DNA of 41,818 nucleotides from Martensiomyces pterosporus (taxonomy: Eukaryota > Kickxellomycota > Kickxellomycetes > Kickxellales > Kickxellaceae), in the NCBI GenBank assembly GCA_025201845.1, contig MU604028.1:10998-52815 (forward strand), in the 5' to 3' direction. The position numbers were made by a program, and so were the translations under genes. The notes below the pieces were generated by a model that was not told the origin of the DNA, did not search any database, and worked only from the letters and a program-made list of their open reading frames with translations. Shown here one piece after another: positions 2,410-25,990 of this stretch. How positions within the stretch are numbered: position 1 is the first letter of the stretch; each line of letters begins with the position of its first letter.

Positions 2410-4029
2410 TCAGCTGCCGAGTCGGCGCACATCGTCCTGAGTCATTCTCAGAACCTCCTGCTCTTCCTCGTCAATCCAGCTCAGCAGCTGGATCCCAGTC
2501 CTGTCAGCATACCACCACATCCTCAAGTACCACGGGACAACACACAGGGCCATGAACACCACGCCCAGCAATGGGGCCAAGTAATACGGCACCTTGGGTT
2601 TCGCCTTCCCCGGTATTTCGGCAGGCGGATAGAACTGGAGCAGCCCAAGCGCGAACGACAGCGCACCAAACAAAAAGCTCAGCACCAGCGGGGACTTGAA
2701 CCTCCTCAGCGGGTAGTTGGGCAGCCGGCGTCTAAGCAGAATGGCGCCAAACGCCGTCAGTGCGTAAAAATACCACATTCCTTCCTGCACCAGCTCCACC
2801 AGGAGGTCAAAGGCCTCGCCGGGCGGCGGCGCGAAGAGAAACACCAGCGACAGAGCCCAGATAATCGCCATGGCATATATGGGTGTCCCGAATCTCGGGT
2901 GGATCGCGCCCAAGACCGCCCCATATGGAACAAACCCCGTCCTGCCAGCGGCGTACATCAGCCGGCCGCCGCCGAATAGCTCGGACATGACGACGCCCAG
3001 AATCGAGAGGCCGATGCAGATGGGCAGGAGGACCTGGCCCATGGCCTTGCCGAACACCTTGTCCATGAACTGGGCCGCCAACAGGGTGCCGTTGTCGATG
3101 TCCTCCAGGGGGATGACGCTGAAGTAGGCGACATTGGCCAGCATGTAGAGGACGGCGATGGAGCTCATGGCTAGGGAGAGGGAGAGGGGGAGGTTGCGCT
3201 TGACGTTCTTCACCTCGCCCACGACGTACCCGACGTTGCTCCAGCCCTCCCATGACCAGAAAAGGCGGGTCATTGCGGAGGCAAACGACTGGGCATCAAA
3301 CTTGGTGCCCTTGAACCCCCTTTGCCAGTTGGTTCCCGGCGTGCGCTTGACAATGCCCACGAGCAGGAGGAGCCCTGTGAAGCTGACAATCAGCAAGGTC
3401 ACCATCTTGACCACCGCAAACACATTCAGCAAGCGCAGGGACCAGCGGACCGAGACCATATTCAGAAGCATCAGCAGGGTCATCACTGCAGCACCGATGC
3501 CGCGCAGCAGGTAGTCCCTTGATTCGATGTAGTCGTGCTTGCCAGCGGCAAAGAAGAAGTACTGCGAGAAGATGGCCACGTTGGCCGCAATGGCTGCTGG
3601 GCGGCAGAAGAATGTGACGGAGTACGCCATGATGGTGGCAATGAGGGCGCGCGGACGCCGGTATGCGTGGGCGAGGTATCGGATCATGCCGCCGTTCTGC
3701 GGGAACATCGTGCCCAGCTCAGCGCTGGCGAGGGCGCCGCCCAGAGAGAACAGGCCGGAGACAAACCACAGGATGAGGGCCATCGACGGTGTGCCGCAAA
3801 GGAAGACTACGGAGGCGGGGGTGGAGAAGATGCCAGACCCGATTACTTGCCCGATGATGATGGACGAGGCTGAGAAGAGCCCGATTTCCTTGCGCAGGCC
3901 CTCGTCGGACACCTCCGCGGGCTTCACCGGGCTGACGTCGTCTGCTAAGGAGCTTGGCCTGCTGAGACTGACGTCGTCCAGGGGCGACTGTGGCTCTGCG
4001 ACGTCCACTGGAACATACACGTTTGCCAT
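2410..4029 (-). CDS. APC-superfamily amino acid permease (LAT / methionine-permease-like)
   Basis: 539 residues from the ATG at 4029. The frame is open further upstream, but that part overlaps TATA-box DNA and reads like non-coding sequence. The first 45 residues are hydrophilic and cytosolic. The APC signature IGSGIF lies at 63-68 within the first membrane helix. About twelve hydrophobic segments follow through residue ~520, the usual number for this superfamily. The sequence around LASAELGTMFPQNGGMIRYLAHAYRRP matches the conserved helix 3 / loop region of L-type amino acid transporters and fungal high-affinity methionine permeases (MUP1-like). The expected role is plasma-membrane or vacuolar uptake of neutral amino acids; the exact substrate cannot be read from sequence. 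It is divergent from the kexin gene. A TATA box and a CACGTG motif lie upstream. The arrestin adaptor encoded at 12.4 kb is of the type that regulates such permeases. Confidence 0.85.
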   Translation of the reverse strand: MANVYVPVDVAEPQSPLDDVSLSRPSSLADDVSPVKPAEVSDEGLRKEIGLFSASSIIIGQVIGSGIFSTPASVVFLCGTPSMALILWFVSGLFSLGGALASAELGTMFPQNGGMIRYLAHAYRRPRALIATIMAYSVTFFCRPAAIAANVAIFSQYFFFAAGKHDYIESRDYLLRGIGAAVMTLLMLLNMVSVRWSLRLLNVFAVVKMVTLLIVSFTGLLLLVGIVKRTPGTNWQRGFKGTKFDAQSFASAMTRLFWSWEGWSNVGYVVGEVKNVKRNLPLSLSLAMSSIAVLYMLANVAYFSVIPLEDIDNGTLLAAQFMDKVFGKAMGQVLLPICIGLSILGVVMSELFGGGRLMYAAGRTGFVPYGAVLGAIHPRFGTPIYAMAIIWALSLVFLFAPPPGEAFDLLVELVQEGMWYFYALTAFGAILLRRRLPNYPLRRFKSPLVLSFLFGALSFALGLLQFYPPAEIPGKAKPKVPYYLAPLLGVVFMALCVVPWYLRMWWYADRTGIQLLSWIDEEEQEVLRMTQDDVRRLGS

Positions 4030-18564: not shown

Positions 18565-19836
18565 GGCGTTCGTTAATCTCAGCCAAAGTGATGCAACATA
18601 GATGTCAAGCTGTGCAGAGATGCTGGCAATCCAGGATGACGACACATTCGCGCTATATAACATACTACACACACTCTCCTCGTCCTCAATGACCGGGCTG
18701 TCTGGAATTGCACCGCAAATATAGCTGGCCGCTGCCACTATGCAAAGCAAACATGTGTAGCAGTAAGATCCAATATTCACAACTCCACAGATGGGCGTCC
18801 AGAAAAAGAAGGCGTTTTGCCAATGTTGCTCTAGATGCGTGGAAGAGTGCGAGCGCGCTAGGGCGGTTTTGCTCATCGAACCACAGTCGCACAGCGGCAC
18901 AATGCTCGGCGCTCGACGTGCATTTCTTAGCGCGGCCTTGCTAAAAGAGCAGCCCAGAAAGTTGGGGAAGAAAGGGGTGTTGGAGGGACACGCTGGACAC
19001 TGGGGTGCGAGCTAAATAGGGGAAAGACGTCAAGGGGAGGCGATCATTGCAGTGCTGTGCTCGCACTACTAGCACGCTAGAAAAATTTAGCGTTCTCTAT
19101 TTTGACTCGGTGGACCCGCATAGTCCTAGATGCTCTTGGCTTCTTGTTGGGCAGCAGGGGTTCTGAATGCACCTTGGTACGTGTGTTTTCCAAGGAGGTA
19201 CGTTGCAGCACTGCAGCACTGGCCGACCGAGAAGCGCATCAGGCTCCTGCCGAGCAGAAGCCCTGGCGCTAGTGGTCCTCGACAATATCTCACCCGCCTC
19301 ACAGAGCTGGCAAGGGGGTCTGTGCTTCAGGCATGCTTCCCTGCCGAGCTGCCTCTTGAGTGGCCGACAGGGCACAGAGTGAGACGACACACTTGACCGC
19401 GCCTGATTGGCCCCCCACCCCAAAAAAATACCACGCAATGCGCAGGTGTCGGCACCGCGAGAAAAAAAATTTTATTTGCGAAATCACAATGCTACTCTGA
19501 GAGGGTACCGAAAGCTCCCAAAGCATAAAAGGGCATCCAAACACGCCATCACACACCCTTGCTCTCTTTCCGGCCCCACTCCCTTTTGCTTTCTACTTTT
19601 CGCTTGTGAGCAGAGACGCTTCTATTCCATATTCTTCTTCCAATTCACACCTCTCCCTCTACTTGCTAACGCCACGAACACCAACAGCACCTTTTCTTTT
19701 GTACGATAAACGCACACTGTATAGCATCTATTTATTCTTCTCTGGAGCGCTTACCCAACCACGCCTTTTACGCCCGTGACATTTCGCTACTCTACTTGCC
19801 ATTTGCCGGAAACCACCAACCTAAGCGAGGGCTGAC
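18565..19836. other. Divergent intergenic region, polyQ gene / BED-methyltransferase gene
   Basis: About 1.27 kb with no supportable gene. It includes the polyQ TATA-like element, A-rich runs at 19424-19430 and 19463-19470 and a CT-rich leader before the BED-finger ATG. Confidence 0.5.
18653..18660 (-). promoter_or_regulatory. TATA-like element of the polyQ gene
   Basis: TTATATAG on the minus strand, 89-96 bases upstream of the chosen ATG. It supports that start over the longer open frame. Confidence 0.4.
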
Positions 19837-22800
19837 ATGGCGCCTAAACACTTTGCGCCAGTATGGCAGCACTACGAGCGACACGAGCCAACCGGGCGGT
19901 CCAAGCACCACAGGGCCATCTGCAAGTTCTGCGGCTACGAGCTGTCGGGACAGCCTGAGCGCATGAAGACGCACCTGCAGCGCTGCTCCAACTGCCCGCA
20001 GGCCATAAAGGACGAGTTTTCAGTAGACGAAGCAGGTGCGCAGCAGCATCCTTCGGGCACTGGAAACCACTCAAACGGGTTCAACACCCCCTATGGAGGC
20101 CAAAACAACTTTGCCGTGTCTACGTCGGGCACAGAGCTTGAGAGAGCTGAGGACAATACGCCCACGCCGGGCATGCCTGGCGGTATGATGATGACTGGCG
20201 GCGACCAGGTGTCTGGGTTGCCGCCGATGAAGCGGAGAAGGTCGATGGAGATCGGAAGTGGCGCTGAGGGCCTTGCGGGGCTCCCGTGGGCTCCTACCGC
20301 CAACGCCAGCGCTATTGTGCCAACGCGTAAGTACCGCCTGCTCCCTTGCCGTGCTTGTTTTATTTGCAGCCTTTGTGTGCTTGCCACGGGACGTTGACAG
20401 AGCTGCTGTGTGCACTCCCACGCACTACTACACGTATACGCATGCATGGTTGCTGTGCGGACGATGGATATTGATAATTATCGATACCCGCTGCATGCCC
20501 TGTGGCCGCTGCTAGCCTTTTCTCTATCGCGCACTTGATGATACCGCTGTCGCAGTCGCTGTCGCAGCCACTGTCGCTGGTGGCGACATGGCAGGGTGAT
20601 AAGCGGCGACCAAAAGCAGGAGTTCCGTTTTGTCTTGCGCCTTCATTATGCCATGCACGCCATATCTTGCATTTGATTGGTATTGCAAGCAGGAGGGCGA
20701 GCAGGAAGGCGAGCAGGAGGGCGAGCAGGAGCGGTCGAGGCTGTGTTTTTGCACCCGCCCCAAAGTGCCTGTTCTTAGCAAACGGAGCAACCAAATGCAC
20801 CCTTTCCCAGCACGCATGCATTCTGCACACGCATTTGGCAGTGCTTCTTTCTTATCGCCATCTCCCTGAGCCACTGCATGCCTTGTTTGTTTTCTACCTC
20901 GCACGGCCTTGATAACAAGATGGAGCTCGGTGATTGTAACACAGCCCGCACGGAGATTTTCCTTAGGACTTGCAGAGAAAAACAGTGATCTGCAGAAACT
21001 TGCATGTCATGCACTAATCGGGCGTGCCTCTAATCCTTGCTGCTTCCTCTTTCTCTCGGTGTGTACTTAGCGCCAGCTATCCCGCCGGCGTTTCAGCAGC
21101 CCTACGCACAGGTGGCGGCCGTAGCAGTGGCACCGTCGGTTACCAACAAGCCCATCCCCACTGCGGGTGGGTCCAGTCGGCACGAGTCGATGATGGGCGT
21201 GTATGAGAATGTTCGCGGGTACTACTCGCGGATATCGTCAATGAGCAAGATGCAGACATCCATCGGCCCAACCATTTCCCCACACCCGATCATCCGCGAA
21301 GCCATTGCAAATGTGCCCAAGCCCGTGCGCGACCGCTTCTTTGGATGCGGCATGCCCCTGCCCACAGGCATCGAGGGCCTCAGAGTCCTTGACCTTGGCT
21401 GCGGTGCGGGCCGCGACTGCTACGTGGCTGCCAAACTGGTCGGTCCCTCGGGCGAGGTCATTGGCGTGGATATGACTGACGAGCAGCTGCGTGTGGCCCA
21501 GGAGTTTATCCCAGAGTATGCGAGGACGCTGGGGTACCAGCCGCACCTGAAGTTCCTCAAGGGCTACATTGAGTTTCTGTCGCAGGAGCCAGCACTTTAT
21601 CCGGGGTCCATTGACCTGTGTATATCGAACAATGCGGTCAATCTGTCACCCAACAAGGAGCTGGTCCTGCAGAGCGTGTTTGATATACTGAAGGAAGGCG
21701 GCGAGTTCCAGTTTAGCGATATATACGCCGACAGGCGGCTGCCCAACCACGTTAGGTCGCATCCGGTGCTCATGGGCGAGTGCCTTGGCGGTGCTCTGTA
21801 TACCGAGGACTTTAAGCGGCTGTGTCAGCGCGTGGGCTTTGTGGATGCCAGACAGGTCAGCGCACCGGCGCCTGTGAGAATTGAGTCGCCCGAGCTGCGT
21901 GATCTGGTGGGTGCTACGCAGTTCTACAGCATCACCTTCAGGCTGTTCAAGTTTGCGCGACCGGCGGCAGTGCTGGAACCCACACGGGAGGACTATGGAC
22001 AGGTGGCGATCTACCGCGGCACTATTGAGGGCCAGAGGGCCAGAGTTAGGTTTGACAACCAGTGGGCGTTTGAGGCGCAGAGGCCGGTTCTGGTGGATGG
22101 AAACACGGCCATTATGCTGGGCGAGTCCTGGCTGAGGAGGCACTTTGAGGTCAGGGGCGATAGGTCCAGGCACTTTGGCAAGTTCACGGCCAGTCCGCCC
22201 GAAGTGCAGTACGAGCCCTGGGAGGTCGCCCACGAGGTTGAAGAATATGTCGGTGCAGGTGGCCAGGACGAGACACAGATCCGTAGGCGTGGAATTCTAC
22301 CATTGCCCACGCCGTTCTTCATCAATGGACTGCGTCAGCAGCAGCAGCAACAGCAGCAACAGCAACAGCAGCAGCCCTCGATGTATATGGCTGGCGATAT
22401 CAACTCGCAGCCGGGATCCAGAATGTCCTCGCCTGTGCACGACCAGCCATCGCCTAGCAGCAGGACTTTGCCGAGTATTGGGACCAGCCCGCAGATGAGC
22501 AACCAGTCGAACCACCGGAGCACACTGAGAGACCACTCGACGTCGTTTCCACGGCTAGCTTCGTTCTCAATCAGCCAGAGCAATGTGCGGTCAGAAGTAA
22601 CATCTGTCAGCGGTGGTGGTGCGAATAATGCGCGAGGCGGCAGCGGCTCCTCGGTTGGCGGTGTTCAGCAGGACGGCATGGTGTCAAAGCACGCTGCATC
22701 TAGCCCGCGGTTCATTCTCCCTGTGAGCCGTGTTTCGTCCACATTCAAGGTGGCTGGAGCAGGAGCAGCGGGTACAGTGCCTATGCCGATTGCGCCTCGG

Positions 22801-23169
22801 TTCGTGGCAGCTCCCCAGCCACCACCTGCCCCAGCTGCACCATCGTCTACTGTTTCGGCGCAACCGGCACCGACAGCGGCTGGTGAGCAGCAACCCACTG
22901 CTGTCCAGCAGCAGCAGCAGATCGCTACACCTCCTCCGCCTCACCAGCACCACGCTGGTGGGCTGAACCCAAAGCAGGCGATGAGCAGCAGCTCGTCTGC
23001 CATGGCGCGATCGCCGGTGGCAGCAGGGCTGAACCCAAAGCAGGCGATGAGCAGCAGCTCGTCTGCCATGGCGCGATCGCCGGTGGCAGCAATAATCATG
23101 GGCGCGCCGTCGCCTCGTCAGCATTCGCCTGTGTCGGCTGCTACTGCCGCTGCCGCACCCATCTCTTAG
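19837..23169 (+). CDS. BED zinc finger fused to an AS3MT-like methyltransferase, with long disordered tail
   Basis: Exons 19837-20326 and 21071-23169 (intron 744 bases, C then GTAAGT ... GTGTACTTAG, with CTAAT branch-like sites), 862 residues. Residues 5-55 form a BED-type finger: Trp10, Cys29-x2-Cys32, His46, Cys50. A disordered linker with KRRR follows. Residues about 193-430 match arsenite methyltransferases: RFFGCG with Cys256, SAM motif I LDLGCGAGRDC (270-280), GVDMT, FSDIYADRRLP, GECLGGALY. The AS3MT C-terminal domain follows, about 430-515. The arsenic-binding cysteines are missing: the position of human Cys156 is Asn351 (SNNAVNL), that of Cys206 is Val421 (VGFVDA), and no Cys lies where Cys32 should be. 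SAM binding thus looks intact while arsenite methylation looks lost. The tail has a polyQ run, Ser/Pro/Ala-rich sequence and a perfectly duplicated 22-residue unit. Nuclear DNA binding is inferred from the finger. The exons could in principle be two genes, but the linker reads through and no good ATG precedes exon 2. Confidence 0.78.
20689..20730 (+). repeat. 12-bp tandem repeat inside the long intron of the BED-methyltransferase gene
   Basis: Units GCAGGAGGGCGA, GCAGGAAGGCGA, GCAGGAGGGCGA and a partial GCAGGA. A CGCTGTCG-rich segment lies nearby at 20544-20580. This intron is about twice as long as the next longest in the window. Confidence 0.8.
22960..23091 (+). repeat. Perfect 66-bp tandem duplication in coding sequence
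   Basis: 22960-23025 and 23026-23091 are identical and in frame. Each encodes a 22-residue unit starting GLNPKQAMSSSSS and ending RSPVAA. With no synonymous differences it is recent or length-polymorphic. Confidence 0.92.
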
Positions 23170-24096: not shown

Positions 24097-25990
24097 ATGG
24101 CAAAGTCTGACGAGCGAATTCTGGCAGCAAAGGGCGCCAGCACAGAGGCTTCTGTCGATGCCAGCAGCCTGCATCTGCTTGTATACTCGTACCTGCTCCA
24201 CAACAACTGTGGGCGGACAGCCAAGGCCTTTGCTCGCACATGCGGCCTGGCCACCTCTGGCAGACTGACCAACTCTTCCACACCCGAGTACCTCTCGTCG
24301 TTGTTCAACTCGGTTGACGATGAAGAAGAGGAAGAGGAAGAGGAAGAGGACGAAGAGGAGGATGTTGATATTGACGGAGCTGTGATGGCTGATGCCTCTT
24401 GTAAGGGTAAGCAGGGCGACGCCGCTATGGCTTCGGGAACCAAGAATGTGGGGAAAAGGGTGAGCAAGAGGCAGTCGGTCTCGGACATGGCTGTTGATTC
24501 GGAATCGTCAAGCGGCAGTTTTGCCAGCAGTGGGAGCAGCGCAACGAGGAGCAGTGCTGGGAGGAAGGACTCGGGTGTCGTGAGCCGCCAGTGCCATGGC
24601 GCTCTGCCGACAGCTGAGCAGGAGCGCCAGAGCGTGGAGACCGAGCGTGCGAATGAGCTTATTGACCACCACATCGAGTACCTGCATATACGGCAAAGTA
24701 AGTCCTTGTCTCTTTCTTTCCTGGCTGCTTGTATGCCTGGCTGCTTGTATGCCTGGCTGCCTGTATGCCTGGCTGCCTGTATGCCTGGCTGCCTGTGTGA
24801 CTCTTTGCTGTTGTAGCTGTCCTGAAGTAACCCCCGCTCTGATTGTGCGGATGGCGTGAGGGATTTCCGTAATGAACCTGGTCATATTATCGATGACAGT
24901 GCAAAATGTGTGATTGCGCCTTTGTCAGCAGGACAGCTGCCAAGTGGAGGGATTGGAGTCGTTGCTGCCATGGCGCCATCTTTTATTGTGCAAATCTGGA
25001 GTCTCCCCGTTTATTGCCCTTTCCTATTATTAATTAACGACGTGCTCTTGTACACGGCGTGTAGGCATTTGCTCCAGTATCGAGGCCGGAGAGCCCGAGG
25101 TTGCACTGGATCTGCTGTCGACGTACTTTAGGGCTGTCCTTATTCCGCCGCCATCGGAGCAGCTGCTTGTGAGCTCGCTTCCCCTGCGCAGAGAGTTCAA
25201 TGCCACGCTGCTGAGGTTCCGCCTTGACACACAGTACTACGTGGAGCTGGTTGCCAACCACCAGGAGCTGGATGCACTGAGGTTTGGGCAGAGAACGCTC
25301 TGGCGCTATCCTGACATATTCGACACGTGGCTAAACAACTCACTTGGGTTTGGAACACAGGCCGGCAGCATGCTCAATGCGTACCAGCAGCAGAATAGCG
25401 CCAGCAGCAGGGGTGCGGGCGGTGGAGCGTTTGGTCGTGCGGATGCTGGCGCTGCGCGTGCGAGCAGCACACGCGGTGGAGCTGTAGACAGCCGCAAGCA
25501 TGGCCCCTTGTCGGCAGCCACCTCCAACGGCGACAGGGACGCAGGGAGCAGACCCCGGCAACTGCAGCAGCAAGGCTGTCGTGCCAGCAAGGACCCACGT
25601 GAGTGTGGCGGTTTGTATGACGAAATTGTGCCCCGCGAGGAGCTCAAGCAGCAAAGGGCCGAGATTATGCAGCATATCACCAACGTCGCCGCCCTTGTCG
25701 CATACCCAGACCCTCACAAGAGCCCCCTGGCTGACCTCCTAAGCCAGGACAGGCGCAGAGAACTGGCGATTTCCGTCAACACGGCCATTCTGCAGAGCAT
25801 GCACTTTCCAAAGGAGCCCGCGCTGGTCACTCTGGTGCGCCAGCTGGCCACTACCAGTGCCTACCTTGTTGGGTACCGCTCATCTACGCGCAGCAGCGCG
25901 ATTAGTGGCGATGGCTCGGCGGATGGCAGGAAGCCCTGGGTCCTGGATACGTTTATGAACTCGGACACTGACACGGATTTGTATGCCTAG
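24097..25990 (+). CDS. LisH-CTLH-CRA protein (RanBPM / GID-CTLH complex type)
   Basis: Exons 24097-24697 and 25065-25990 (intron 367 bases, GTAAGT...TGTAG, splitting a Ser codon), 508 residues. LisH motif at about 24-55 (LHLLVYSYLLHNNCGRTAKAFAR). A Glu/Asp run follows at about 75-92, then a Ser-rich disordered insert. The CTLH region, from residue ~185, crosses the splice junction (LIDHHIEYLHIRQ joined to SICSSIEAGEPEVALDLL). The CRA domain comes in two blocks: QYYVELVANHQELDALRFGQ, and after another insert, YPDPHKSPLADLLSQDRRRELAISVNTAIL. This domain order is that of RanBPM/Gid1 and Gid8, scaffold subunits of the GID/CTLH ubiquitin ligase that degrades gluconeogenic enzymes. No SPRY domain precedes LisH, which argues for a Gid8-like or SPRY-less RanBPM paralogue. 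The junction restores the CTLH consensus, so the gene model is good. Confidence 0.82.
24721..24799 (+). repeat. 16-bp minisatellite in the intron of the LisH-CTLH-CRA gene
   Basis: Five tandem units of TGGCTGCTTGTATGCC / TGGCTGCCTGTATGCC, the last incomplete, starting 23 bases after the donor site. Confidence 0.9.

What the first reader, a model, noticed from the sequence alone, without database searches (positions are those of the whole stretch)
19837..23169. BED zinc finger spliced to an arsenite-methyltransferase fold that has lost its arsenic-binding cysteines
Seen: exon 1 encodes a complete BED finger (Cys29, Cys32, His46, Cys50). Exon 2 encodes an AS3MT-type SAM domain with intact LDLGCGAGRDC and GECLGGALY, plus the AS3MT C-terminal domain. 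Known: AS3MT chemistry needs conserved cysteines (human Cys32, Cys61, Cys156, Cys206). Here only the Cys61 equivalent (Cys256) remains; Asn351 and Val421 occupy the Cys156 and Cys206 positions. Inference: a small-molecule detoxification enzyme has been rebuilt into a DNA-targeted methyltransferase or SAM-sensing regulator. I know of no described protein with this architecture.
Basis: partly seen in the sequence, partly recalled or inferred. Interest (0 to 1): 0.88.

Follow-up and report, generated by a model that had tools for sequence, protein, structure and literature searches.

The report
Arsenic-enzyme fold carrying a DNA-binding finger
A fungal gene joins a DNA-binding type of zinc finger to the body of an arsenic-detoxifying enzyme that has lost part of its arsenic-holding site, and a similar union arose separately in water moulds, which suggests that a detoxification enzyme was reused as a gene regulator.

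Summary
The fusion is real. The spliced 862-aa product (19837-20326 + 21071-23169) has a BED finger over Pfam's cut-off and a complete AS3MT domain. 25 of 32 listed Kickxellomycotina homologues begin with the same finger and, where compared, match across the proposed splice junction. Lost are the Cys32 and Cys156 equivalents. Cys156 is present in 268 of 268 relatives without a recognised finger and in 0 of 35 Kickxellomycotina sequences (N, S or K). SAM motifs stay conserved. BED and methyltransferase domains are each about 70% identical to three Harpellales homologues; linker and tail 20-24%. A separate AS3MT with three of the four cysteines lies elsewhere in the genome. Finger-AS3MT proteins also occur in the oomycete lineage (six seen; five with damaged arsenic sites, one perhaps intact); a common origin with the fungal ones is rejected (p 0.0016). 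Best reading: a DNA-binding protein whose AS3MT-like domain still binds SAM, as sensor or regulator, or as methyltransferase with a new substrate. DNA binding, SAM binding and nuclear location are inferred. My searches found no description of this architecture.

The parts
19837..20326 (+). exon 1: BED finger plus start of the disordered linker
   Evidence: open frame 19825-20397; spliced product
19858..19986 (+). BED zinc finger, residues 8-50 (Cys29, Cys32, His46, Cys50)
   Evidence: Pfam PF02892 27.5 bits, cut-off 20.6; N-terminal PKHFA and finger in 25 of 32 Kickxellomycotina models
20230..20244 (+). KRRRS, nuclear-localisation-like basic run
   Evidence: a basic-run pattern, searched anywhere in the protein, in 26 of 35 Kickxellomycotina sequences, fragments included; function inferred
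20260..20295 (+). conserved linear motif GAEGLAGLPWAP in the linker
   Evidence: pattern GL.G[LFI][PS]W in 22 of 35, in Kickxellales and Harpellales; the 13 misses are fragments or short models and a Coemansia subclade
20327..21070 (+). 744-base intron (GTAAGT...TTAG); branch-point-like ACTAAT at about 21013 noted by eye
   Evidence: sequence; homologues match across the junction
21071..23169 (+). exon 2: rest of linker, AS3MT-type domain, disordered tail, stop
21211..22185 (+). AS3MT-type SAM domain with its C-terminal domain, residues about 211-535
21346..21348 (+). Cys256 = human Cys61 / CmArsM Cys72 (kept)
   Evidence: 34 of 35 Kickxellomycotina
21388..21420 (+). SAM motif LDLGCGAGRDC
   Evidence: D271 G273 G275 G277 D279 among 77 columns conserved in both groups
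21631..21633 (+). Asn351 at human Cys156 / CmArsM Cys174 (arsenic ligand lost)
   Evidence: N 27, S 7, K 1 of 35; C in 268 of 268 relatives without a recognised finger
21781..21783 (+). Cys401 = human Cys206 / CmArsM Cys224 (kept here)
   Evidence: C 26, S 7, N 2 of 35
22546..22590 (+). conserved tail motif FPRLASFSISQSNVR
   Evidence: FPRL form in 26 of 35 (absent from Harpellales), looser F.I(S/K) form in 32 of 35
22708..22740 (+). conserved tail motif RFILPVSRVSS
   Evidence: 23 of 35; not in Mycoemilia or Harpellales

Best explanation
A DNA-binding regulatory protein of Kickxellomycotina made by joining a BED finger to an AS3MT paralogue. Shown by sequence: the finger, the complete AS3MT-type domain, retained SAM motifs, no Cys156 equivalent in 35 of 35 sequences and no Cys32 equivalent in the 33 that cover that loop, a less acidic domain, and strong constraint on both domains. 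Inferred: the finger places the protein on DNA; the domain binds SAM (or SAH) but cannot methylate arsenite; the SAM-bound state changes how the protein or its disordered tail motifs act on transcription, so it reads the cell's methyl-donor state. Whether it also transfers methyl groups to a protein or nucleic acid is left open as the main rival.
Against: No direct evidence of SAM binding, DNA binding or nuclear location. Nothing computed here separates a sensor from an active enzyme. Cys61 and Cys206 equivalents remain in most members (34 and 26 of 35), which a mere SAM sensor would not need. BED fingers can also mediate protein contacts (recalled). The charge groups overlap: 12 of 267 others reach -2 or more, and several fungal and oomycete-clade relatives lie at -5 to -7. 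The basic run and linker motif are not found in all members. In the oomycete lineage P0035 has the finger and may keep all four cysteines, so a finger does not by itself mean loss.
Confidence: 0.48

Rival explanations
1. Active methyltransferase with a new macromolecular substrate (chromatin protein, DNA or RNA), brought to DNA by the finger.
For: SAM motifs nearly invariant; substrate pocket changed (Cys156 to N, S or K; next residue V to A); eight of 36 newly constrained columns are Arg; structures listed below the AS3MTs include protein N-terminal methyltransferases, but at a level shared by many class I enzymes.
Against: No (D/N)PP(Y/F/W) amino-methyltransferase motif at the SNNAVNLSP position (motif recalled); no substrate known; conservation of the SAM motif fits a sensor equally.
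Confidence: 0.32
2. Scaffold that no longer uses SAM: the AS3MT fold serves only as a protein-protein module on a DNA-binding protein.
For: Enzyme folds are often reused this way (recalled); tail and linker carry conserved short motifs.
Against: SAM-motif columns are conserved at 90% or more in both groups, which a pure scaffold would not require.
Confidence: 0.1
3. Still a metalloid enzyme or arsenic sensor working through Cys256 and Cys401.
For: Both cysteines are kept in the window; an ArsM needing only two cysteines is known (review passage).
Against: That enzyme needs positions 145 and 195, which I take to be the 174 and 224 equivalents (my mapping, not tested); 174 is lost here in 35 of 35. 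Cys401 is replaced by S or N in 9 of 35 and Cys256 by F in 1 of 35. A separate AS3MT exists in the genome.
Confidence: 0.07
4. Gene-model artefact: two neighbouring genes, finger and methyltransferase.
For: A 744-base intron; a Met inside exon 2 could start a free AS3MT; the Kickxella model P0019 has no finger.
Against: Homologues in two orders are annotated as one protein, with the junction matched residue by residue in P0005 and others; most of those models are themselves predictions.
Confidence: 0.02

Closest known systems
AS3MT / ArsM, arsenite S-adenosylmethionine methyltransferase (CrArsM 5evj, CmArsM 4fr0, human 8xt7)
   Same: Whole domain and SAM motifs; 53% identity to CrArsM over 300 residues in the model of P0012.
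   Different: Cys44/32 and Cys174/156 equivalents lost; N-terminal BED finger, long disordered linker and tail; less acidic.
Oomycete-lineage finger-AS3MT proteins P0034 (metagenome), P0035 (Pythium insidiosum), P0237 (P. oligandrum); P0241, P0252, P0285 (metagenome)
   Same: N-terminal finger or finger-like segment before an AS3MT domain; arsenic cysteines damaged in five of the six.
   Different: Separate origin from the fungal family (p 0.0016 for the BED-like three). P0035 keeps the 61, 156 and 206 equivalents and has a Cys in the 32 loop that the alignment places off-column. The BED-like finger scores under Pfam's cut-off; the segment of P0241, P0252 and P0285 is seen only as a C..C / H...H pattern and has no Pfam match.
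LaeA-type nuclear methyltransferase-like regulators of fungi (abstract openings in the search listing)
   Same: SAM-binding-site protein acting as a regulator; substrate debated (recalled).
   Different: Other methyltransferase family; no own DNA-binding finger (recalled).
Human AS3MT d2d3 isoform (passages of PMC9546433)
   Same: AS3MT domain reported not to methylate arsenic, with another role inferred.
   Different: Splice form, not a separate gene; no finger (recalled).
BED fingers of transposase-derived proteins such as DAYSLEEPER (search listing only)
   Same: BED finger in a domesticated host gene.
   Different: Partner here is AS3MT, not a transposase remnant.

Membership tests
AS3MT / ArsM enzyme | class I SAM fold plus AS3MT C-terminal domain | tested here: met
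   sequence; model is of homologue P0012, not of the window protein
AS3MT / ArsM enzyme | SAM motif DLGxGxGRD and GVDMT | tested here: met
AS3MT / ArsM enzyme | Cys at human 61 / CmArsM 72 | tested here: met
   Cys256
AS3MT / ArsM enzyme | Cys at human 156 / CmArsM 174 (arsenic ligand) | tested here: not met
   Asn351
AS3MT / ArsM enzyme | Cys at human 206 / CmArsM 224 (arsenic ligand) | tested here: met
   Cys401; lost in 9 of 35 family members
AS3MT / ArsM enzyme | Cys at human 32 / CmArsM 44 | tested here: not met
   TSIGPTI in place of TSAC; no Cys in this loop in 33 of 33 family rows that cover it, two fragments lack it
AS3MT / ArsM enzyme | arsenite methylation | not testable with these tools
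   needs protein
BED zinc finger protein | C-x2-C ... H-x3-C finger over the Pfam cut-off | tested here: met
   27.5 bits against 20.6
BED zinc finger protein | DNA binding | not testable with these tools
   needs binding assay
DNA/RNA amino-methyltransferase | (D/N)PP(Y/F/W) motif IV (recalled) | tested here: not met
   SNNAVNLSP at the corresponding place, by eye
LaeA-like regulator | sequence relation to LaeA | not tested
   LaeA was not compared

The most novel reading that the evidence does not exclude
Arsenite methyltransferase has been a repeated raw material for DNA-bound regulators: in fungi and, independently, in the oomycete lineage (once or twice), a zinc finger was joined to an AS3MT copy, its arsenic cysteines were then lost step by step (P0035 may show the fused state before loss) while the SAM site was kept, and the product became a SAM-reading or methylating DNA regulator.
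Probability: 0.4. Interest if true: 0.86.

Novelty: new variant of a known kind. Interest (0 to 1): 0.7.

Why it matters
It would be a clean natural experiment in how a detoxification enzyme becomes a regulator: same fold, same cofactor site, chemistry removed, DNA-binding part added, and repeated in two distant lineages. It would also give a candidate direct link between methyl-donor level and transcription in fungi, and a model for the non-arsenic role proposed for the human AS3MT d2d3 isoform. An earlier ArsM survey that demanded at least three of four cysteines could not see the fungal class.

Tried and rejected
Two separate genes: rejected on homologues that match across the junction. Pseudogene: rejected, because both domains are conserved across two orders. 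Arsenic enzyme with two cysteines: unlikely, because the retained pair is not the required one and Cys401 is itself lost in 9 of 35. Fusion alone as the cause of cysteine loss: 87 relatives of 480 aa or more without a recognised finger, many with other partner domains in the listing, keep Cys61, Cys156 and Cys206 in 87 of 87. One single origin of all finger-AS3MT proteins: fungal plus oomycete BED-like rows together rejected, p 0.0016 (the group was defined by the finger, but I had seen the tree). The two oomycete-lineage groups together are NOT rejected as one clade (p 0.289), so I claim at least two origins, although the tree's minimum is three changes. Their two fingers show no profile similarity. 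The BED-like oomycete finger and the fungal BED align (hhalign probability 92, E 6e-7, one comparison). BED sequences of the same genome as donor: weak similarity only (L001 probability 26, L002 26). Literature searches with no hit: 'arsenite methyltransferase' + 'BED zinc finger', zf-BED + methyltransferase + fungi + domain architecture, 'arsenic methyltransferase' + pseudoenzyme. Broader searches returned papers of which I saw listings, and passages of a few, and no title on such a fusion: 9 papers; 15 of 951 listed; 13; 10. The library holds open-licence papers only. No dN/dS: nucleotide sequences of the relatives were not available.

Limits of the comparison set: its 268 rows are hits listed best first by three searches (at most 120 each), not a random sample; they hold near-copies, the own-genome AS3MT, and P0122, a tandem protein. 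'Without a recognised finger' means: a first pattern scan covered 285 of 307 proteins; a broader scan outside the methyltransferase part of 267 rows found a loose pattern in five (P0033, P0069, P0088, P0103, P0269), which I judged by eye not to be fingers, P0269 with least certainty. The first scan missed P0241, P0252 and P0285, which I found by eye.

Motif counts are now stated as pattern searches over the whole protein.

Full report
What is there. The window lies on a contig of a 17.4 Mb genome with ordinary eukaryotic genes around it by Pfam: amino acid permease, subtilase with P-domain, hexokinase, ClpB-type ATPase, USP7, FANCD2. The gene has two exons, 19837-20326 and 21071-23169, giving 862 aa. 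The closest listed proteins are from Coemansia (P0001 90% identical over 344 domain columns), so the organism is most likely a Kickxellales fungus (inference).

The fusion is real. The search scored 216 homologues and listed the best 120; 32 of these (P0001-P0032) are from Kickxellomycotina: Coemansia, Kickxella, Mycoemilia, Furculomyces, Smittium. In 25 of the 32 the model begins with PKHFA and the same finger. The other seven are P0015, P0016, P0018, P0020 and P0021 (annotated partial), P0024 (starts inside the finger) and P0019 of Kickxella, whose model starts after it. The finger positions that are covered read C, C, H, C without exception. The splice junction is matched by homologues. P0008 runs on into a CTLH domain; in the window a CTLH frame lies just downstream, so gene order looks conserved there too.

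The cysteine map. By the printed alignments to human AS3MT and CmArsM, human Cys61, Cys156 and Cys206 correspond to Cys256, Asn351 and Cys401. The Cys32 loop reads TSIGPTI in place of TSAC. I audited 309 domain sequences: 307 proteins from three searches, the window, and the own-genome AS3MT. Without a recognised finger, 268: Cys32 265 (3 gaps), Cys61 267 (1 gap), Cys156 268, Cys206 265 (3 Gly). Kickxellomycotina, 35: Cys32 0 (33 cover the loop), Cys61 34, Cys156 0, Cys206 26. Oomycete-lineage finger proteins, 6: Cys32 0 by column, Cys61 5, Cys156 2, Cys206 3. Of those six, P0035 keeps 61, 156 and 206 and has a Cys in the 32 loop off-column, so it may have an intact site. The own-genome AS3MT (L004) keeps 32, 61 and 156 and has Gly at 206, so it is not a perfect four-cysteine enzyme; P0251 and P0276 share that Gly.

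More than one origin. In a maximum-likelihood tree of 68 chosen rows (18 of the 35 fungal finger rows) the fungal family is one clade (100/100) beside fungal AS3MTs (96/85). The oomycete BED-like rows group with the AS3MT of Pythium oligandrum and two metagenome rows (98/88), the third finger type with that of Nothophytophthora (99/89). A fungal plus oomycete BED-like clade is rejected (p 0.0016); one origin for both oomycete-lineage groups is not (p 0.289). The third finger type comes from metagenome contigs only and its finger is unproven; that it belongs to oomycetes rests on the tree.

What it most likely does. The arsenic chemistry described for CmArsM needs Cys72, 174 and 224 for the first step and 174 and 224 for the second (PMC6950371, passages); with 174 gone in all 35 it should not run. 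The kept SAM site and the finger argue for a DNA-bound protein that uses SAM as a signal or as a donor for another substrate. I put the sensor or regulator reading at 0.48 and the new-substrate enzyme at 0.32; both rest on inference beyond the sequence.

Known or new. The parts are known families. I found the combination in no paper of the held library under the searches. Of two evolutionary surveys of AS3MT I saw passages only: in PMC5398495 the words zinc, fusion, fused and Kickxell do not occur in the main text; PMC5552862 mentions a fusion with SelD in Naegleria and states that only sequences with at least three of four cysteines were analysed. I file the protein as a derived paralogue of AS3MT, not as an AS3MT enzyme.

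Noticed in passing
L012:446-3142 and 3216-3992 (own genome, contig C155): A frame with a BED finger runs open into what looks like the first exon of a DUF34/NIF3 gene (PF01784 168 bits in the next frame, lacking only the first profile positions): a possible second BED-enzyme fusion in the same genome, unless NIF3 starts at the internal Met.
   Followed up: partly
P0241, P0252, P0285 (metagenome proteins): AS3MT domains behind a finger-like C..C / H...H segment with KRKRTTR, no Pfam match; Cys156 replaced by Gly and Cys206 by Trp in P0252 and P0285.
   Followed up: partly
P0035 (Pythium insidiosum): BED-like finger joined to an AS3MT domain that may keep all four arsenic cysteines, possibly the fused state before cysteine loss.
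   Followed up: partly
L004:985-2316 (own genome, contig C132): Own AS3MT has Gly at the human Cys206 position (GEGLAGALY), as do P0251 and P0276: a rare three-cysteine form (3 of 268).
   Followed up: partly
P0122 (Plasmodiophora brassicae): 587-aa protein with two tandem AS3MT domains, the second with GEG in place of GEC.
   Followed up: no
window 22960-23091: Direct repeat of 22 residues (GLNPKQAMSSSSSAMARSPVAA twice), and a run of 13 glutamines at about 22336-22374, in the disordered tail; seen by eye.
   Followed up: no
L001 (own genome, contig C12): BED finger in a long open frame with no other Pfam domain (868 residues to the end of the locus).
   Followed up: no
window 24097-25990: CTLH-type gene directly downstream; a CTLH domain is annotated in one protein with BED-AS3MT in Coemansia sp. 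Benny D115 (P0008), probably a merged model that shows conserved gene order.
   Followed up: partly
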